From assembly GCA_020725805.1 (NCBI GenBank), contig DYEF01000048.1, forward strand, positions 1 through 7,382: DNA of 7,382 nucleotides, written 5' to 3'. This document shows positions 456 to 7,169 of this stretch, in pieces. Below the pieces are notes generated by a model that saw only the letters and a program-made list of their open reading frames with translations, had not been told where the DNA came from and did not search any database. Both the position numbers and the translations under genes were made by a program. The number at the start of each line of letters is the position of its first letter. Position 1 is the first letter of the stretch. The stretch comes from Bdellovibrio sp. (GTDB lineage Bacteria > Myxococcota > SpSt-1050).

Positions 456-1664
456 TTAGAGTGCTCTGGCTACCTTTATTGCATCCATAGTTGCCTTTAC
501 GTTGTGGACTCTCAGGATATCCGCACCGCTCATAGTCAGAATAGTATGGATGGCTGTTGTGGCATCCTCCCTCTCTGGTATTTCCTTCCCTGTTATAAAT
601 CCCAGAAGGGATTTTCTGGAAACACCGATAAGTACGGGTCTTTTCAGGCTTCTGAAGGCAAGCAGGTCCTGAATTATACGAATATTATGCTCGGGCCGTT
701 TTCCGAATCCTATACCGGGGTCAACGGCGATATTCTCGAAATTTACTCCTGCATTCAAAGCGGTATGAATCGATTTTTCGAGGTAATCTGTAATCTCTGT
801 AATGACGTTTTTATAATAAATCTCTCCCTTCTGCATATCTCGTGGTCTGCCTCTGATATGCATCAGTATGAGACCGCAACCGGATTTACCTGCAATTTTT
901 GCAATTTTTGGGTCGAATCCCAGTCCTGAGATGTCGTTGATGATAGAGGCTCCGTTATCAAGAGCCGCCTTTGCGACTTCCGATTTTGTAGTATCTATCG
1001 ATATCGGAGTCTTGATTCTGCGCTCAAGTGCCTTTATTACGGGAATTACCCTCTTTATTTCTTCCCTTGCATCAATCCCTGTTGAGCCGGGTCTCGTGGA
1101 TTCACCGCCTACGTCGATGATATCTGCCCCCTTTTCGGATAATTCTATCCCGTGCCTGATAGCATCGTCTGCACTGAAATATTTACCTCCGTCTGAGAAG
1201 GAATCCGGTGTAATGTTTAATATACCCATAATGAGCGGTCTGTCATCGCATTTGAGCACCCTGTTCCCGGCAATCCTGAAGAGAGGCCTTTTCTGTTCAT
1301 TAAGTATCTTCTCGATCTCCTTGCCGATTTCCTTCAGGAAGAAAGGTTCAGATTTTAGCTTTTTTGACAGCAGACTGAGTTCTTTGCCGGTACCTGAAAG
1401 CAGCACATTGCATTTTCTGGATTTGCATTCGACAGCCCTCATAGGCACAGCTGCCTCTGCACCGCAGGCGAGTGCCTCCTGTTTCAGTATGTTGCACTCG
1501 GGAGATGTCAGTCCTGTCAGGTAGAATACGAAGAGACTGAATTTGCTGCTCATTATTCTGATGCCGGCAGGATGTACTCCTATTTCTTCAAATCTTTCAC
1601 GGATATTTTTCAGGTCGAACTTCCTTAACAGAAATATTCTCTTACCCTCGTTCATCTTCAACAA
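456..1664 (-). CDS. folP: Dihydropteroate synthase, long form with N-terminal extension
   Basis: Condenses 6-hydroxymethyl-7,8-dihydropterin pyrophosphate with p-aminobenzoate to give 7,8-dihydropteroate in cytosolic folate synthesis. The TIM-barrel core is residues about 134-402, the usual length. Motifs seen: MGILNITPDSFSDGG (146-160), DVGGESTRPGS (184-194), SIDTTK (222-227), NDISG (243-247), LMHIRG (267-272, more often LMHMRG), DPGIGFGK (315-322), GVSRKS (347-352) and RVHNV (385-389). Pterin and pABA-loop residues look intact, with no sulfonamide-resistance-type insertion visible. Residues 1 to about 130 form an extra domain with NILKQEALACGAEAAV (58-73), a segment shared with long DHPS of Geobacter-like and other anaerobic bacteria as I recall; its role is unknown to me. 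The gene overlaps the upstream DedA gene by 23 nt, so translation is probably coupled. Start choice: TTG at 1664 or 1661 or ATG at 1655; see the RBS entry. Confidence 0.95.
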   Translation of the reverse strand: MLKMNEGKRIFLLRKFDLKNIRERFEEIGVHPAGIRIMSSKFSLFVFYLTGLTSPECNILKQEALACGAEAAVPMRAVECKSRKCNVLLSGTGKELSLLSKKLKSEPFFLKEIGKEIEKILNEQKRPLFRIAGNRVLKCDDRPLIMGILNITPDSFSDGGKYFSADDAIRHGIELSEKGADIIDVGGESTRPGSTGIDAREEIKRVIPVIKALERRIKTPISIDTTKSEVAKAALDNGASIINDISGLGFDPKIAKIAGKSGCGLILMHIRGRPRDMQKGEIYYKNVITEITDYLEKSIHTALNAGVNFENIAVDPGIGFGKRPEHNIRIIQDLLAFRSLKRPVLIGVSRKSLLGFITGKEIPEREDATTAIHTILTMSGADILRVHNVKATMDAIKVARAL

Positions 1665-2295
1665 TCTTCTCCTCTTCCTTGTCGATGTAGTAGGTCTCTT
1701 TCTTCTTGGTCCATCTTCTTATTACAATCCAGATAATAACTGCTGCTATAATTACTACGGCAGCTGCCTCTTTCATCCTGATTATATATACCTTGAGGTG
1801 GTCGATCTGTTCACCGAAATGGAATGCCAGATAGACGAGCGCCGGTACAGAGAGTATTGCAGCGAGACCGTCGAATAGAAAGAACCTGAAGAATGAGGTC
1901 CCTGTCATTCCTGCTATCAGAAATATAGTTGATCTGATGCCGGGCATAAATCTTGCCGAAAAGAGTATCTTTGCCCCGTGGCTTATGAAATACTGGGTGA
2001 GTGTCGCAACCCTTTTGCCGGTAAAAATCCGTCTGAACCCCGGCAGGGTAATTACCTGCGGCCCCAGATATTTCCCGAGAAAAAATATGGTGGAATCACC
2101 GAGCATTACACCAAAGTATGAAACCAGTATAAGCAAATAGATATTTACGCTATCCGGATACAGATATGCTATATATCCTCCGGTTATCAGAATTATATCT
2201 TCGGGAATAGGGACACCGAGTCCGCACATAAAGAGGAGCAGGAAGACTCCTATGATAAGGTAGCTCTCGACAAAATTTATTACGAATGATTCCAT
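1642..2295 (-). CDS. DedA-family (VTT domain) inner-membrane protein
   Basis: A 217-residue polytopic membrane protein of the DedA/SNARE-associated (VTT) family. Members include lipid scramblase/flippase-like carriers such as UptA and PetA and proteins needed for membrane-potential homeostasis; the substrate here cannot be told from sequence. Seen: an N-terminal hydrophobic segment leading into the re-entrant motif GVPIPEDI (27-34) with the conserved acidic residue, a membrane segment with GD (66-67), the signature ARFMPGIRSTIFLIAG (114-129) with the conserved Arg and Pro-Gly, and a last hydrophobic helix about 178-193. It ends in a charged tail (about 194-217, Lys then Glu rich), part of which is encoded in the overlap with folP. 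It starts 7 nt after the porB stop; the only SD-like sequence (AAGGAG) is about 20 nt upstream inside porB, so translation coupled to porB is likely. Confidence 0.9.
   Translation of the reverse strand: MESFVINFVESYLIIGVFLLLFMCGLGVPIPEDIILITGGYIAYLYPDSVNIYLLILVSYFGVMLGDSTIFFLGKYLGPQVITLPGFRRIFTGKRVATLTQYFISHGAKILFSARFMPGIRSTIFLIAGMTGTSFFRFFLFDGLAAILSVPALVYLAFHFGEQIDHLKVYIIRMKEAAAVVIIAAVIIWIVIRRWTKKKETYYIDKEEEKIVEDERG
1669..1674 (-). promoter_or_regulatory. folP ribosome binding site that bears on the start codon
   Basis: GAGGAG on the minus strand lies inside the 3' end of the DedA gene. It is 4 nt from a TTG at 1664, 7 nt from a TTG at 1661 and 13 nt from the ATG at 1655. By spacing the TTG at 1661 is best and the ATG is far. 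The three options differ only by up to three residues, so the protein is barely affected. Confidence 0.5.
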
Positions 2296-2302
2296 TAAGG
2301 GA

Positions 2303-3211
2303 TCAGGAGGATGCGCTCCTTTTCTTCAGGAGCTCATTCATAGTTACCTTGAGTTTCAGTCTGTCCCATTCTCTGTCGACGAACTCCTGATACAACTTGT
2401 ATTCCTCGTCACTGATATGAGAAAAGCGGGCCTGCTGTTTCATATATTCTTTTACAGGAACGCCTTTGGGTTCGTAGTTGATGACATATTCCTCACCGTT
2501 GTAAATCTCATAGAGAGGGAAGTATTTCGATTCGGTTGCCAGCCTGGCGATTTTGATTGAGTAATCAGAGGATATCTTCCAGCCCGGAGGACACGGGGCG
2601 AGTATGTGAATGAATCTCATTCCCTTAATACCCATTGCGGTCTTTACTTTTCTCATAAGGTCTTCGGGATAGGCTACGTTTGCTGTGGCTGTGTACGGAA
2701 TTCTGTGGGCAGCCATAATCTCTATCATATTCTTTTTGCGTTCGGCCTTGGGGGTCTGGGATGGTGTAGTGGTAGTCCATGCGAGCTGAGGGGTTGCGGA
2801 ACTCCTCTGAATACCTGTATTCATATATGCTTCGTTGTCATAACAGATATAAATAATGTTCTCGTTTCTCTCTGCGGCGCCCGACAATGCCTGAAAACCT
2901 ATGTCGAATGTACCGCCGTCTCCGGCCCATGCCAGCACCTGAATGTCGGTTTTGCCCTGCATATCCAGAGATGCCCTGACTCCTGTTGCGGCAATTGCAG
3001 CTGTCTCAAACGCCGTATGCATAAACGGGACTTTGACTGCTGAATAGGGGAAGGGTCCGTTTATGACAGACCAGCAGCAGGCCGGTACAACGACCACTGT
3101 CTTTTCTCCCATAACTTTAAGGGTTAGTCTCATTGCAAGCGCACCTCCGCATCCCTGACATGCAAGGTGTCCCTGACTTACAAGTTCTGTCTCCGGATAT
3201 TTATTATTCAT
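2303..3211 (-). CDS. porB: Pyruvate:ferredoxin oxidoreductase (2-oxoacid:ferredoxin oxidoreductase) beta subunit
   Basis: The thiamine-diphosphate-binding subunit of the multi-subunit 2-oxoacid:ferredoxin oxidoreductases, which convert pyruvate and CoA to acetyl-CoA and CO2 with reduction of ferredoxin in the cytosol of anaerobes. Seen: GHLACQGCGG (14-23) with C18 and C21, C45/C46 in PACCW and C207 in APCPPGW, the expected ligands of the 4Fe-4S cluster near the cofactor; the ThDP/Mg motif GDGG (97-100) with N126 following 26 residues after the GDG; and YDNEAYMNTGIQRSSATP (124-141), strongly conserved in PorB. The length (302) is normal for the separate beta subunit. AAAGGAG lies 9 nt before the ATG. 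Alpha, gamma and delta subunits are not in this window: a YqaA gene stands upstream and a DedA gene downstream. A close paralogue acting on 2-ketoisovalerate or another 2-oxoacid cannot be excluded. Confidence 0.9.
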   Translation of the reverse strand: MNNKYPETELVSQGHLACQGCGGALAMRLTLKVMGEKTVVVVPACCWSVINGPFPYSAVKVPFMHTAFETAAIAATGVRASLDMQGKTDIQVLAWAGDGGTFDIGFQALSGAAERNENIIYICYDNEAYMNTGIQRSSATPQLAWTTTTPSQTPKAERKKNMIEIMAAHRIPYTATANVAYPEDLMRKVKTAMGIKGMRFIHILAPCPPGWKISSDYSIKIARLATESKYFPLYEIYNGEEYVINYEPKGVPVKEYMKQQARFSHISDEEYKLYQEFVDREWDRLKLKVTMNELLKKRSASS

Positions 3212-3243
3212 TCTGAATAACTCCTTTCCAAAATGACAGTATT

Positions 3244-3272
3244 TTTATAGGTAAAATAAAATGAAAATGCAA
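3244..3272 (-). promoter_or_regulatory. Sigma-70-like promoter for porB-dedA-folP
   Basis: On the minus strand: TTGCAT (3267-3272), a 17-nt spacer, then TATAAA (3244-3249). This lies in the 102-nt gap between the YqaA gene and porB and predicts a transcript start near 3237, about 25 nt before the porB start codon. The spacing and hexamers are good; the gap is AT-rich, which tempers confidence. It suggests that porB and the genes after it form their own transcription unit. Confidence 0.55.
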
Positions 3273-3313
3273 TATAAATTGTAGATGCGATATATTTTTA
3301 ATCTTTGAAAATC

Positions 3314-3949
3314 TTACATAAGTTTCTTCACGACAACGAACCCGCCGATCAGCAGAATTGTGAATACTATGGCGAGCAGGTCAAAGTATTTGTCGATGAA
3401 TCTCTTTATCGGAGGTCCGAATATGTAGATAAGCCCTGCAACAAGAAAGAACCTTCCCGCCCGTCCTGCCAGCGAGCCCAGAAAGAGCGACAGGACAGAT
3501 ATTTTACACACACCGCCGGCAATAGTAAAAACCTTGTAGGGAATCGGGGTAAATGCCGCTGTAAATACAGCAAGTGTTGCATTATCCTGATATTTCTGAA
3601 CAACGATATTGAATACTTCTTCTGAAAAGACATACTTAAAGAAGAAGGCCTTCAGGTTCAGTTCTTCCCAAAGGGCAAATCCGATGTAGTATCCGAGGAA
3701 TGCTCCGAGTATTGAGCCTGCGGTACAGATCAATGCAAACCAGAATGACCTGTTCCTCATTCCCAGACAGAGGGCAATAAGCAGGACATCCGGAGGTATA
3801 GGAAAGAAAGAGGATTCTGCAAAGGCTATCAGAAAAAGAGCTGGTGCACCGTATGGTGTCTCCGCCCAGTGAAGTACCCAGTCGTATAGCCTTTTCATAT
3901 AATAGAAAGGCAGGCGATACCATGCAACTGATTGAACTGAATCTGACAT
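3314..3949 (-). CDS. YqaA-family (VTT domain) membrane protein
   Basis: A 211-residue polytopic membrane protein of the YqaA group, distant relatives of DedA. Its biochemical role is not known to me. Seen: MKRLYDWVLHWAETPYG (18-34), the usual beginning of family members, then the motif FAESSFFPIPPDVLLI (43-58), a glycine-rich helix GSILGAFLGYYIG (78-90), AAFTPIPYKVFTIAGG (131-146) with the second Pro-containing re-entrant motif, GRAGRFFLVAG (162-172), and a final helix near 190-207. The start at 3949 is preferred because GAGGA stands 4 nt upstream; the ATG at 3898, where typical family members begin, has no ribosome binding site, so 17 extra N-terminal residues are predicted. It lies just downstream of the lipoprotein terminator and is followed by the porB promoter. 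I see no clear promoter or terminator of its own. Confidence 0.9.
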   Translation of the reverse strand: MSDSVQSVAWYRLPFYYMKRLYDWVLHWAETPYGAPALFLIAFAESSFFPIPPDVLLIALCLGMRNRSFWFALICTAGSILGAFLGYYIGFALWEELNLKAFFFKYVFSEEVFNIVVQKYQDNATLAVFTAAFTPIPYKVFTIAGGVCKISVLSLFLGSLAGRAGRFFLVAGLIYIFGPPIKRFIDKYFDLLAIVFTILLIGGFVVVKKLM

Positions 3950-4082: not shown

Positions 4083-6551
4083 TTACTTGAGTTCGCAGAC
4101 AGGTGCACAGGCAGGAGCCTTGACATCGCCGCCGCACTTCTTGGTGTAGTCTGCATCCTCGGGTTTGAGTTTCTTGATGCAGCTGATGGTGCTGAATTTC
4201 TCGACAGGTGTCATAAGGTCTGCCATTGAGCCCTTGCCGCCGGCTGCAACGATATCCTCGAATGTCCATCCGGCTGTCAGCTTGATTGAGTGGATGGTGA
4301 GGTCTGAATCAGCCTTAACTGCGCCGAAACCGTTCGGGATGGCAGGTATCGCAAATTCTGTCCCAACCTTTGTCGGAGCCATATAGATGAACCAGCCATT
4401 GCCGTTATCGGTCTCGATAGCATATCTGTAGAATGAAGCGCCGTCGACCACCTGTGTCTTGATCTTCATACTTGTTCTGTCGAAGTATGAACCATCACCG
4501 CCTTCGGGGAAGCCAAGGAATTTCTCGGATGAGAGATTATATGTCTTCTCTACCTTGTTGGTCATCTTGATTATGGCTGTAATAGCATTCTCTGTTCCGC
4601 CGCCGAAGTTGTTGAAGTCGATTGCGAGGAATGCATAGACGTAAGAGTTGGTCTCGAATCCGTTGTAGGCCGGAGCCATTCTGAGCATAAGCTGACCATC
4701 AACGAGGTTGTCCGGATTGTTGGTCGGCTTGTTGATCTTGCCGTCGCCCGGTACCTTCGGGTCATCGGTATCTGTTCCGGCAGTGAGACCCATCGGAACA
4801 ACGCCCATCTCAGGAACATACATTGCACCCAATCCAATCAGACCGCCGAAATATGCACCGCGCAGAATCGGGAGTGTCGGCATATCGAATACCGTCTTGA
4901 GGAGGAGCTTCATTGTGAGTGTCATATTGACCTGCGGGAATTTGTCGAAATCAGGAATCTTCGGTTTGTCGGAGATCGGTTTGCTTGCACACTTGCCTTC
5001 TCCGTTGGGTGTATCGATTGTCGGGATGAGTTCGACCTTGAGTGCCGAGGCTGAGCCGTGGCTGAATTTGTTGAAGAGCGGGAGAATCGATGCAAGGAGC
5101 TGACCGATGTTGAGGTCATCGCCGCTTGAAATAATCGGTGAAAGCAGGTTGATGAGGGCTGTAATCTCTGAATCTGAGAGACCACCGCCGAGTCCCCATG
5201 CTGACCTGAAGCCTTCCTCGCAGGCTACCCTGTAGTTTTTCGGAATCAGGTCATTGATGCCATATTTCTTTGCGGTAGCCACAAGACCTGACGGGAGTGA
5301 TATACACTCATCGACGGCTGTCGGTTCTGTCAGGACAATGCTTTCGGCAAGCATCTCACCAACAATGGTATTGAGGTCGAAATTCAGAAGGTCTCCTGCA
5401 ACGCTGCAACCGGCAATACCAAGCTCTATTGAATGATATTTGAGCTGTGAGAAGTCAAATTTGCCTCTGAATCCGCCTGCCTTGTTGATGTCGGCCTTGG
5501 GCGGGAGATAGATTACATAGTCGCTCTTGTTTGCGCCGATTACTGATACGTATGAGTAGTTCGCGTGGAAGACGTGTACATCAGCCGGACCACTTACGAC
5601 CTCTGCAAGACCGGTGGCATCTGTTACGACCGGTGACTTGTCACCGATTACAACCGTTGCGTCTTCAACCGGTTTTCTTGTCTTCTGGTCGAGGACTACT
5701 ACTCTGACATTGCCGCTGTCCGTGTTGAGGAGATTCTTTACGTTGAGGGTGTTTTCGCAGTCAATACTTCCGACTTTTGCAGAAATCTTTGATACACCCG
5801 CTGAATCTCCGCCTGTGATAACGCCGTTTGCGTCTACTGCTACTGAAGCCGGTACCGAGGAAGTCCAGGTAAAGGTCTGCCACGGAATGATTGTTGTGCC
5901 CTTATAGGCAATTGCGTGGAGCTGAATCTTCTGGCCTTTGTAGATTGTGCTGACTTTTGAGGTGATTGCGCATTTGTCCGGGGTCTCCGAGAAGTCTCCG
6001 CACTTTCCTGCAATACACTTCTTGGGTGTACATTCTTCGTCAGAAGAGCAGGCAGGGGCAACACATTCACCGGCTACAAGGTCACAAACCTTGTTTTCAG
6101 CCTCGCAGTCCTTATCGGACTGGCAGATTGCGCCGCACTTCTTGTCTGATTTGCAGATAATGGGTTTCTGCCCTTTTGCCGCAGGACAGCAGTCATCATC
6201 GGTCTCACAGCTTCCGCCAACCTTTTCGCACTTTGCACAGACACCGTCGAAGTTACACCACTGTGCACTGGGTGACTGACAGCATTCGTTGTCTTCAAGA
6301 CAAGATTCGCCTTCCTTGAGACAGGAGACGCACTTGCCTTCGACACAGGTATACTCGTCACAGCATTTGTTGTTGTCATCGCAGGCTTCGTTCTCTTTTT
6401 TGCAGCCGCCGCCGTTGGTATCAGTCAGTGATACATCCTGTCCGGCTGTGTCGGTCGGGGTACTCCCGCCATCTCCGTCACCTCCGCAGGCTGCGAAGAG
6501 AAAACCAAAAATCGCCATTGTTAATAAAATGCCCAATAACTTACCTTTCAT
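4083..6551 (-). CDS. Large cysteine-rich lipoprotein with tandem knottin-like modules, BIG2 and carboxypeptidase-regulatory-like domains
   Basis: An 822-residue surface or periplasmic lipoprotein of unknown function. Signal peptide residues 1-21 end in the lipobox LFAAC with lipidated C22, then a Gly/Asp/Thr linker (GGDGDGGS...) to about residue 48. Residues 50-139 hold three cysteine-knot-patterned modules (separate entry); 143-184 hold eight more cysteines. About 194-275 resembles a bacterial Ig-like BIG2 domain (ITSKVSTIYKGQKIQL, WTSSVPASVAVDANGVITG, GVSKISA), bracketed by C194 and C265. About 280-352 looks like a carboxypeptidase-regulatory-like beta-sandwich (GNVRVVVLDQKTRKPVEDATV, TDATGLAEV). 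Residues 353-822 are not recognised: partly helical (about 455-497), then beta-rich, ending in CGGDVKAPACAPVCELK. No catalytic motif is visible. An ideal SD (AAAAGGAGGT) precedes the ATG and a strong terminator follows the gene. Such architectures are familiar in myxobacteria-like deltaproteobacteria; adhesion or ligand binding is a guess. Confidence 0.88.
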   Translation of the reverse strand: MKGKLLGILLTMAIFGFLFAACGGDGDGGSTPTDTAGQDVSLTDTNGGGCKKENEACDDNNKCCDEYTCVEGKCVSCLKEGESCLEDNECCQSPSAQWCNFDGVCAKCEKVGGSCETDDDCCPAAKGQKPIICKSDKKCGAICQSDKDCEAENKVCDLVAGECVAPACSSDEECTPKKCIAGKCGDFSETPDKCAITSKVSTIYKGQKIQLHAIAYKGTTIIPWQTFTWTSSVPASVAVDANGVITGGDSAGVSKISAKVGSIDCENTLNVKNLLNTDSGNVRVVVLDQKTRKPVEDATVVIGDKSPVVTDATGLAEVVSGPADVHVFHANYSYVSVIGANKSDYVIYLPPKADINKAGGFRGKFDFSQLKYHSIELGIAGCSVAGDLLNFDLNTIVGEMLAESIVLTEPTAVDECISLPSGLVATAKKYGINDLIPKNYRVACEEGFRSAWGLGGGLSDSEITALINLLSPIISSGDDLNIGQLLASILPLFNKFSHGSASALKVELIPTIDTPNGEGKCASKPISDKPKIPDFDKFPQVNMTLTMKLLLKTVFDMPTLPILRGAYFGGLIGLGAMYVPEMGVVPMGLTAGTDTDDPKVPGDGKINKPTNNPDNLVDGQLMLRMAPAYNGFETNSYVYAFLAIDFNNFGGGTENAITAIIKMTNKVEKTYNLSSEKFLGFPEGGDGSYFDRTSMKIKTQVVDGASFYRYAIETDNGNGWFIYMAPTKVGTEFAIPAIPNGFGAVKADSDLTIHSIKLTAGWTFEDIVAAGGKGSMADLMTPVEKFSTISCIKKLKPEDADYTKKCGGDVKAPACAPVCELK
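6000..6125 (-). other. Second cysteine-rich segment of the lipoprotein
   Basis: Residues 143-184 contain C143, C149, C156, C163, C168, C174, C179 and C184, with spacings 5-6-6-4-5-4-4. There is no CC pair, so the framework differs from the three modules before it. It resembles two short repeats of the type CxxDxxC...C...C seen in secreted deltaproteobacterial proteins, each beginning with a C-x-S-D-x-(D/E)-C-like unit (QSDKDC, SSDEEC). Confidence 0.55.
6135..6404 (-). other. Three tandem cysteine-knot (knottin)-patterned modules in the lipoprotein
   Basis: Residues 50-139. Each module has six cysteines in the pattern C-x6-C-x5-CC-xn-C-x4or5-C. Module 1: C50, C57, C63, C64, C69, C74 (n=4). 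Module 2: C77, C84, C90, C91, C99, C105 (n=7). Module 3: C108, C115, C121, C122, C133, C139 (n=10). Modules are joined by two-residue linkers. The first two gaps are identical in all three, and the loop after CC grows by three residues each time. This is the classic cysteine framework of inhibitor-cystine-knot peptides; the disulfide pairing itself is inferred. Confidence 0.7.
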
Positions 6552-6635: not shown

Positions 6636-7169
6636 TCAGTAGGTCCTTCCCACTGTAATTTTGGTTCTTATTCTGTATTTCTCTTTGGGAAGAGTCATTA
6701 CAGAAAATTCCTTGTATGGCAGAAGGTTCTTGCCTTCGCCTATCTGACCGCCTGTCTCCTGAGCCTTTGTGAAGTATGCATCGGATTCCATCGGGGTAAG
6801 CACGATCTTGTCCGAATTGAAGAGTTTTTTCAGAACGGGCTTCAGTTTCTTGTCTTCTATGTGATACATTTTCTTCATATTGAGGTCTTTGTCTTTGCCT
6901 TCGGGGACCTTATCTACGTCAAGATTGTCTACCAGAAACTGTGCGCCTATTACATTTGGGTCAATATATATCTTGATCTTGAAGTTGTAGTCCTTGTTCT
7001 TGTATTCGAGATTCTTGAACCCCTTGCCGTTGAACTCCCACCCCTGCATATTATTGACAAAGAAATCCTTGACCTGCTCTTCGGAAAAACCAATGATATT
7101 GGCTGCATAAAGCGGCAGGGATAATATCTGAAATAAAAGTAATAGTACAATAACGCTTATTCTTTTCAT
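6636..7169 (-). CDS. Small secreted protein of unknown function
   Basis: A 177-residue protein I do not recognise. Residues 1-22 are a clear Sec signal peptide: K2-R3, a hydrophobic core VIVLLLLFQIL, and a likely type I site after LYA (22) or LYAA (23). There is no lipobox cysteine, and no cysteine anywhere in the protein. The mature part (about 154 residues) is lysine-rich with alternating charged and aromatic residues, for example FNGKGFKNLEYKNKDYNFKIKIYIDP, broken here as FNGKGFKNLEY then NKDYNFKIKIYIDP, suggesting a small mixed alpha/beta domain exported to the periplasm or outside. The C-terminus KYRIRTKITVGRTY looks like an edge beta strand. AAGAGGT stands about 8-10 nt before the ATG. 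It precedes the cysteine-rich lipoprotein by 84 nt on the same strand with no terminator between, so co-transcription is likely and a shared envelope role is a reasonable inference. Confidence 0.8.
   Translation of the reverse strand: MKRISVIVLLLLFQILSLPLYAANIIGFSEEQVKDFFVNNMQGWEFNGKGFKNLEYKNKDYNFKIKIYIDPNVIGAQFLVDNLDVDKVPEGKDKDLNMKKMYHIEDKKLKPVLKKLFNSDKIVLTPMESDAYFTKAQETGGQIGEGKNLLPYKEFSVMTLPKEKYRIRTKITVGRTY

What the first reader, a model, noticed from the sequence alone, without database searches (positions are those of the whole stretch)
6000..6404. Bacterial lipoprotein with three tandem inhibitor-cystine-knot frameworks
Seen: six-cysteine modules with identical first two spacings (x6, x5, CC) repeated three times, with a loop that lengthens 4, 7, 10 residues, then an eight-cysteine segment of different spacing. 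Known: this framework is that of knottins, common in animal toxins, plant inhibitors and some surface proteins; tandem copies on a bacterial lipid anchor followed by BIG2 are not something I can match to a described family. Inference: an oxidatively folded, protease-resistant display region in the periplasm or on the surface, with variable loops that may bind a partner.
Basis: partly seen in the sequence, partly recalled or inferred. Interest (0 to 1): 0.72.

Follow-up and report, generated by a model that had tools for sequence, protein, structure and literature searches.

The report
Bacterial lipoprotein with toxin-type knotted modules
A lipid-anchored envelope protein of an uncultured myxobacterial relative begins with three small cysteine-knot-like modules of the kind best known from spider toxins, which here look like extra-braced versions of the four-cysteine beads that form a variable-length stalk in a protein family found across the phylum.

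Summary
Residues 50-184 of an 822-residue lipoprotein (window 4083-6551, minus strand) hold three C-x6-C-x5-CC modules with a third loop of 4, 7 and 10, then eight more cysteines. None of 300,000 shuffles of the segment gave three such modules.

A confident model (pLDDT 85.6) has one hairpin per module, and its plausible structural neighbours are ICK toxins, knottin inhibitors, Dickkopf and colipase. Disulfides could not be read out; only module 1 has textbook ICK spacing.

The protein is not an isolated oddity. Its family is found in 68 of 97 relatives (Myxococcota). Module 3 aligns with plain four-cysteine repeats lacking knot cysteines 1 and 4. Cysteine 4 occurs only where an odd number of cysteines lies upstream (10 of 10), as a cysteine 1-4 bond requires, and cysteine counts are even in 36 of 36 members.

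Best reading: a variable-length, disulfide-braced stalk on a lipid anchor, with three beads upgraded from two to three disulfides. Loops are as conserved as the rest, against hypervariable display. The partner and cellular role are not shown.

The parts
4083..6551 (-). Lipoprotein gene, 822 aa, stop included
   Evidence: ORF with ATG and a strong Shine-Dalgarno (AAAGGAGG) upstream; 81% identical protein in a same-genus genome
6486..6551 (-). Signal peptide and lipobox, lipidated Cys22 (residues 1-22)
   Evidence: sequence MKGKLLGILLTMAIFGFLFAAC; lipobox-type Cys in the aligned relatives
6405..6485 (-). Low-complexity G/D/T linker (residues 23-49)
   Evidence: translation; 74% identity to sister protein, lower than the modules
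6330..6404 (-). ICK-like module 1 (Cys 50,57,63,64,69,74)
   Evidence: spacing 6-5-0-4-4 fits the published ICK consensus (PMC4942781); model hairpin carries Cys69 and Cys74
6237..6323 (-). ICK-like module 2 (Cys 77,84,90,91,99,105)
   Evidence: spacing 6-5-0-7-5; hairpin with Cys99 and Cys105; structural match to conotoxin GXIA over this region
6135..6230 (-). ICK-like module 3 (Cys 108,115,121,122,133,139)
   Evidence: spacing 6-5-0-10-5; matches hanatoxin over 34 residues at 2.3 A; aligns with four-Cys repeats in distant relatives
6063..6125 (-). Four-Cys repeat A (Cys 143,149,156,163)
   Evidence: all four Cys invariant in 22 aligned proteins; model hairpin with Cys156 and Cys163
6000..6050 (-). 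Four-Cys repeat B (Cys 168,174,179,184)
   Evidence: all four Cys invariant in 22 aligned proteins; model hairpin with Cys179 and Cys184
5742..5978 (-). Bacterial Ig-like (Big_2-type) domain, residues about 192-270
   Evidence: Pfam Big-like E 0.003 and Big_2 E 0.034, below cut-offs; Foldseek probability 1.00 to Big_2 domains, rmsd poor over the whole alignment
5478..5714 (-). Carboxypeptidase-regulatory-like beta sandwich, residues about 280-358
   Evidence: CarboxypepD_reg found in 9 of 22 aligned proteins, not in this member itself
4086..5477 (-). Conserved beta-rich core of unknown function, residues about 359-822
   Evidence: invariant G447, W452, P561, G583, G588, F678, W720 across 22 aligned proteins; no Pfam match; model mean pLDDT 64.6

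Best explanation
The segment is a stretch of a disulfide-braced, variable-length stalk between the lipid anchor and the conserved Ig-like and beta-rich domains of a Myxococcota envelope lipoprotein. The basic bead is a four-cysteine hairpin (inferred pairs 1-3 and 2-4). In this lineage three beads carry one more disulfide, between a cysteine seven residues before the first and a cysteine directly after the second, which makes them ICK-like (1-4, 2-5, 3-6). Presumed working: export, lipidation, oxidation by the VKOR-DsbA enzyme, then a stiff protease-resistant stem that holds the C-terminal domains away from the membrane. Shown: spacings, family, conservation, hairpin prediction, structural neighbours, coupling of cysteines 1 and 4, presence of an oxidase. 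Inferred: exact pairing, rigidity, stalk role, surface exposure.
For: Model pLDDT 85.6 with the last two Cys of all five modules on the two strands of a hairpin. Foldseek/VIA neighbours: double-knot toxin, SGTx1, Dkk1 CRD2 (Z 5.0), colipase, mamba intestinal toxin 1, hanatoxin, EETI-II, scorpion toxin U1-liotoxin-Lw1a 2kyj. Module 3 Cys115, 121, 133, 139 invariant in 22 aligned proteins while Cys108 and Cys122 come and go together. Cys4 present implies an odd number of Cys upstream, 10 of 10; without it 22 even and 4 odd, each of those 4 with one other extra Cys in the module; total even in 36 of 36. Over modules in the fetched loci Cys1 and Cys4 co-occur, odds ratio about 15 to 59 depending on definition. 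The number of modules before the two conserved repeats varies from one to more than ten at the same place in the protein. VKOR and DsbA domains in one ORF.
Against: No structural hit reaches E 0.001, which is usual for 30-residue domains but leaves the fold unproven. C4-C5 loops of 7 and 10 exceed the consensus C-x3-7-C-x3-8-C-x0-7-C-x1-4-C-x4-13-C, and a tick toxin with a long loop there has ICK pairing but another fold (PMC4942781). Modules and homologues are related by descent: the tree needs only 3 changes and starred branches force only 1, so the coupling rests on few independent events. The stalk function rests on position, variation in number and analogy.
Confidence: 0.6

Rival explanations
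1. The modules are a binding display: knotted scaffolds whose loops recognise a partner such as a prey or neighbour surface, a glycan or a protease.
For: Knottins and tandem ICK toxins act as high-avidity binders (PMC6262176); module 3 resembles channel toxins and trypsin inhibitors in fold.
Against: Loops are not more variable than the rest between sister species (83% against 81%), no inhibitory or binding loop is recognisable, and module number changes freely between relatives.
Confidence: 0.2
2. Modules 2 and 3 are not independent ICKs but one colipase-like or Dickkopf-like two-subdomain unit, with a separate small module 1.
For: The best structural matches span modules 2 and 3 together (model 31-98, protein 75-142): Dkk1 CRD2 Z 5.0, colipase 3.8, MIT1 3.4; Dickkopf_N gives 22.8 bits on the region; Dkk domains consist of two ICK-like subdomains (PMC6078440).
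Against: Dickkopf_N is under its cut-off of 25 bits; Z 5 is within the range of common arrangements; modules also match single ICKs alone. This rival and the best explanation overlap: a stalk could be made of such units.
Confidence: 0.25
3. The cysteines bind metal or stay reduced, and the resemblance to knots is only a matter of spacing.
For: Pairing was not measured.
Against: Exported lipoprotein, oxidase in the genome, even cysteine counts in 36 of 36 family members, and structural neighbours that are mostly disulfide-rich proteins.
Confidence: 0.05

Closest known systems
Inhibitor cystine knot toxins and knottins (hanatoxin, SGTx1, EETI-II, double-knot toxin)
   Same: Cys order and first spacings; module 1 spacing; hairpin with the last two Cys; structural neighbours of the model
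   Different: Bacterial, lipid-anchored, serial beads of a large protein; modules 2 and 3 have longer C4-C5 loops; no known target
Dickkopf cysteine-rich domains (PF04706) and colipase fold
   Same: Weak profile similarity in three stretches and best VIA match, Dkk1 CRD2 Z 5.0; many matches in the phylum, over the cut-off in 43 of 58 genomes
   Different: This protein is under the cut-off; the array has single beads in series; no Wnt pathway in bacteria (general knowledge)
Disulfide-directed hairpin (DDH) peptides
   Same: Four-Cys hairpin beads; scorpion toxin U1-liotoxin-Lw1a (2kyj), a DDH peptide, among structural hits
   Different: Described so far in arachnids and sea stars (PMC11891777); pairing of the bacterial beads unproven
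Myxobacterial Cys-rich repeats of TraA (TIGR04201)
   Same: Cys-rich tandem repeats proposed as a rigid stalk on the myxobacterial surface (PMC3325183); a long-array relative matches at 22.3 bits, just under the cut-off of 25
   Different: The window protein itself has no TIGR04201 match and no PA14 domain match in Pfam; it is a lipoprotein, with other Cys spacing
SCREPs (secreted cysteine-rich repeat proteins)
   Same: Tandem disulfide-rich domains; the survey noted many bacterial members (PMC6262176)
   Different: Its text on the whole set does not describe this family, and ICK was not among its 20 commonest folds
DUF7107 (PF23416)
   Same: Matches the four-Cys arrays of long relatives, E 4e-21 at best
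   Different: No match in the window protein

Membership tests
Inhibitor cystine knot | Consensus spacing C-x3-7-C-x3-8-C-x0-7-C-x1-4-C-x4-13-C, module 1 | tested here: met
   6-5-0-4-4 (consensus from PMC4942781)
Inhibitor cystine knot | Same consensus spacing, modules 2 and 3 | tested here: not met
   C4-C5 loops of 7 and 10 against 1-4, so these two are called ICK-like only
Inhibitor cystine knot | Disulfides 1-4, 2-5, 3-6 | tested here: inconclusive
   Coupled presence of Cys1 and Cys4 and even counts fit; no coordinates or mass spectrometry
Inhibitor cystine knot | Hairpin that carries Cys5 and Cys6 | tested here: met
   Predicted strands around 68-70/73-75, 97-99/104-107, 131-133/138-141 (model numbering plus 44)
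Dickkopf_N (PF04706) | Score over the curated cut-off of 25 bits | tested here: not met
   22.8 bits for the region, 10.4 for the whole protein
Disulfide-directed hairpin (four-Cys repeats) | Two disulfides bracing a hairpin | tested here: inconclusive
   Hairpins predicted at 155-157/162-164 and 178-180/183-185; pairing unmeasured
Myxo_Cys_RPT (TIGR04201) | Profile match | tested here: not met
   No match at E 1 for the region or E 10 for the protein
Big_2 (PF02368) | Score over cut-off 22.8 | tested here: not met
   14.5 bits; 8 of 22 aligned proteins match at E 0.01 or better and the model resembles Big_2
Bacterial lipoprotein | Signal peptide with lipobox ending in Cys | tested here: met
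   LFAAC, Cys22, and lipobox-type starts in relatives; lipidation itself not testable here

The most novel reading that the evidence does not exclude
Myxococcota carry an old family of serial single hairpin beads in which two-disulfide (DDH-type) and three-disulfide (ICK-type) forms replace each other at the same position of one protein. This would be a bacterial case of the disputed DDH-ICK transition and a model for the single-subdomain ancestor proposed for Dickkopf and colipase domains.
Probability: 0.25. Interest if true: 0.78.

Novelty: new variant of a known kind. Interest (0 to 1): 0.5.

Why it matters
Whether ICK arose from DDH or the reverse is disputed, and direct evidence was said to be lacking (PMC4942781, PMC11891777). 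Here both forms seem to sit at one alignable position inside an otherwise conserved protein, in a phylum with many further copies, so the question can be tested by larger trees and by disulfide mapping in harmless bacterial proteins. It also gives knot-type modules a structural context, a braced stem on a lipid anchor, that is unlike a venom.

Tried and rejected
Sequence search of the PDB with the Cys region: no match at E 10. NCBIfam: no match for the window protein. Genome contigs with the single protein found nothing; an alignment of five found six loci. A first alignment of 22 was too diverse for pattern search. A first parse of modules counted the last Cys of the preceding repeat as Cys1 and was discarded; the second prefers whole units. 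Automatic lipobox finding was wrong for several relatives; the parity test was redone with lipoboxes set by eye. The core model (pLDDT 64.6) was too weak to name a function beyond the Ig-like start. dS between sister proteins is saturated, so no dN/dS is given. Plasmid records: no match. Papers on bacterial Dickkopf or knottin modules: none found in the held library, which lacks most subscription journals.

Full report
What is there. The minus strand at 4083-6551 encodes an 822-residue protein with a signal peptide and lipobox (Cys22), a short G/D/T-rich linker, and 26 cysteines between residues 50 and 184. These form three modules with the spacings 6-5-0-4-4, 6-5-0-7-5 and 6-5-0-10-5, then two four-Cys repeats with 5-6-6 and 5-4-4. 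Shuffling the segment with its own composition never gave three complete modules in 300,000 trials.

The rest of the protein. After the Cys region come a Big_2-type Ig-like domain (sub-threshold in Pfam; Foldseek probability 1.00 to Big_2 domains), a stretch that is CarboxypepD_reg-like in 9 of 22 aligned family members, and some 460 residues of beta-rich core without a Pfam match. The gene follows a small secreted protein gene (6636-7169); this pair is kept in the same-genus genome at 84% and 81% identity.

Family. A search of 97 genomes found related proteins in 68, in 41 of 63 genera. Records found by pattern search in named genomes are MAGs titled Deltaproteobacteria, Myxococcota or Myxococcales, so the phylum is taken to be Myxococcota. 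In 22 aligned proteins the four Cys of module 3 that are knot cysteines 2, 3, 5 and 6, and all eight of the two repeats, are invariant. Upstream of them the number of modules differs widely: no Cys at all in L004 and L014, five six-Cys modules in L036, ten or so four-Cys repeats in L006, L007 and L013. The anchor and the C-terminal domains are constant; what lies between changes in length.

Six-Cys modules elsewhere. A profile of 19 such modules matches 77 of 195 genomes of the phylum at E 0.01, in other proteins too: for example at the C-terminal end of an unrelated protein in L082. Dickkopf_N matches are abundant in the phylum (54 of 58 genomes, over the cut-off in 43; none of 14 control genomes over it), though the window protein itself stays under the cut-off.

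Fold. AlphaFold2 with a six-row alignment gave a mean pLDDT of 85.6 for residues 45-190, with a short hairpin for each of the five modules; in each the last two cysteines lie on the two strands (protein residue = model residue + 44). Foldseek against the PDB gave no match under E 0.001, but the list is led by the double-knot toxin, SGTx1 and Dkk1 complexes, with Dkk4, colipase and many single ICK toxins below, among some unrelated large proteins at low probability. VIA-align gave Dkk1 CRD2 (Z 5.0), colipase (3.8) and mamba intestinal toxin 1 (3.4) over modules 2 and 3 together, and single ICKs over single modules: hanatoxin and Pn3a on module 3, conotoxin GXIA over the module 2 region, protoxin-1 over the module 1 region, and the trypsin inhibitor EETI-II. 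That the plausible neighbours are of this class is the main support for the knot reading. The tools did not hand out coordinates, so disulfide pairing could not be checked.

Coupling of cysteines 1 and 4. If the third disulfide joins cysteine 1 to cysteine 4, they should come and go together. In four members of the order both are present in module 3; in L004 both are absent. Across 36 members a parse-free test was made: cysteine 4 of module 3 is present in 10, and all 10 have an odd number of cysteines between lipobox and module; of the 26 without it, 22 have an even number, and the 4 odd ones have one other extra cysteine inside the module (Fisher p 4e-6 without correction for relatedness). 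The total is even in 36 of 36. Over hundreds of modules in the fetched loci co-occurrence gives odds ratios of about 15 to 59. Limits: loci were partly chosen for such modules, relatives are not independent, and on the core tree the trait changes only three times, with one origin not ruled out by starred branches.

Oxidative folding. The same genome has one ORF with VKOR and DsbA domains, the machinery expected for a protein whose 36 cysteines other than the lipidated one are even in number.

Mechanism. The most economical reading is a braced stem. Position next to the lipid anchor, change of length between relatives, and constant terminal domains fit a spacer; TraA's Cys-rich repeats were proposed as a rigid stalk in myxobacteria (PMC3325183). 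Display of variable loops is less likely, since the non-Cys residues of the knot region are 83% identical between sister species, the whole protein 81%, and all 37 cysteines are kept. Inhibition or channel binding cannot be excluded but has no positive evidence.

Relation to what is known. Module 1 meets the published ICK spacing; modules 2 and 3 do not, because of the C4-C5 loop (PMC4942781). Dkk domains are made of two ICK-like subdomains, and a single-subdomain ancestor was proposed (PMC6078440). DDH peptides were known from arachnids and sea stars, and the direction between DDH and ICK is disputed (PMC11891777; PMC4942781). Tandem Cys-rich proteins in bacteria were noted in bulk in 2018 (PMC6262176), but I found no description of this family or of ICK-like beads in it in the held library.

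Verdict. A real and well-conserved feature, correctly seen; a new variant of known disulfide-rich repeat proteins rather than a new kind. Its value lies in the apparent exchange of four- and six-Cys beads at one position.

Noticed in passing
L082:1554-3056: An ORF unrelated to the lipoprotein (TolB/PD40-like by eye) in a Myxococcales MAG ends in a six-Cys ICK-like module preceded by another CC-containing cluster.
   Followed up: partly
L087, L094, L096 (G000:C75:about 3998-9412): The window's genome has an 1878-residue reading frame made of dozens of four-Cys repeats.
   Followed up: no
L142, L143 (G000:C66:83796-84884): VKOR and DsbA domains in one 446-residue ORF, the likely disulfide-forming enzyme of this organism.
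   Followed up: partly
L019, L023, L027: Instead of cysteines 1 and 4 these relatives have one upstream cysteine and one directly after cysteine 6, perhaps another way to add a third disulfide.
   Followed up: partly
window 6636-7169: Small secreted protein of 177 aa directly upstream of the lipoprotein, without Pfam match, kept next to it in the same-genus genome (84% identity).
   Followed up: partly
window 1642-3949: Two VTT (DedA-type) membrane protein genes flank a gene for a thiamine-pyrophosphate enzyme subunit of ferredoxin oxidoreductase type.
   Followed up: no
L031, L079: The G002 genome holds several paralogues of the lipoprotein, two of them on one short contig.
   Followed up: no
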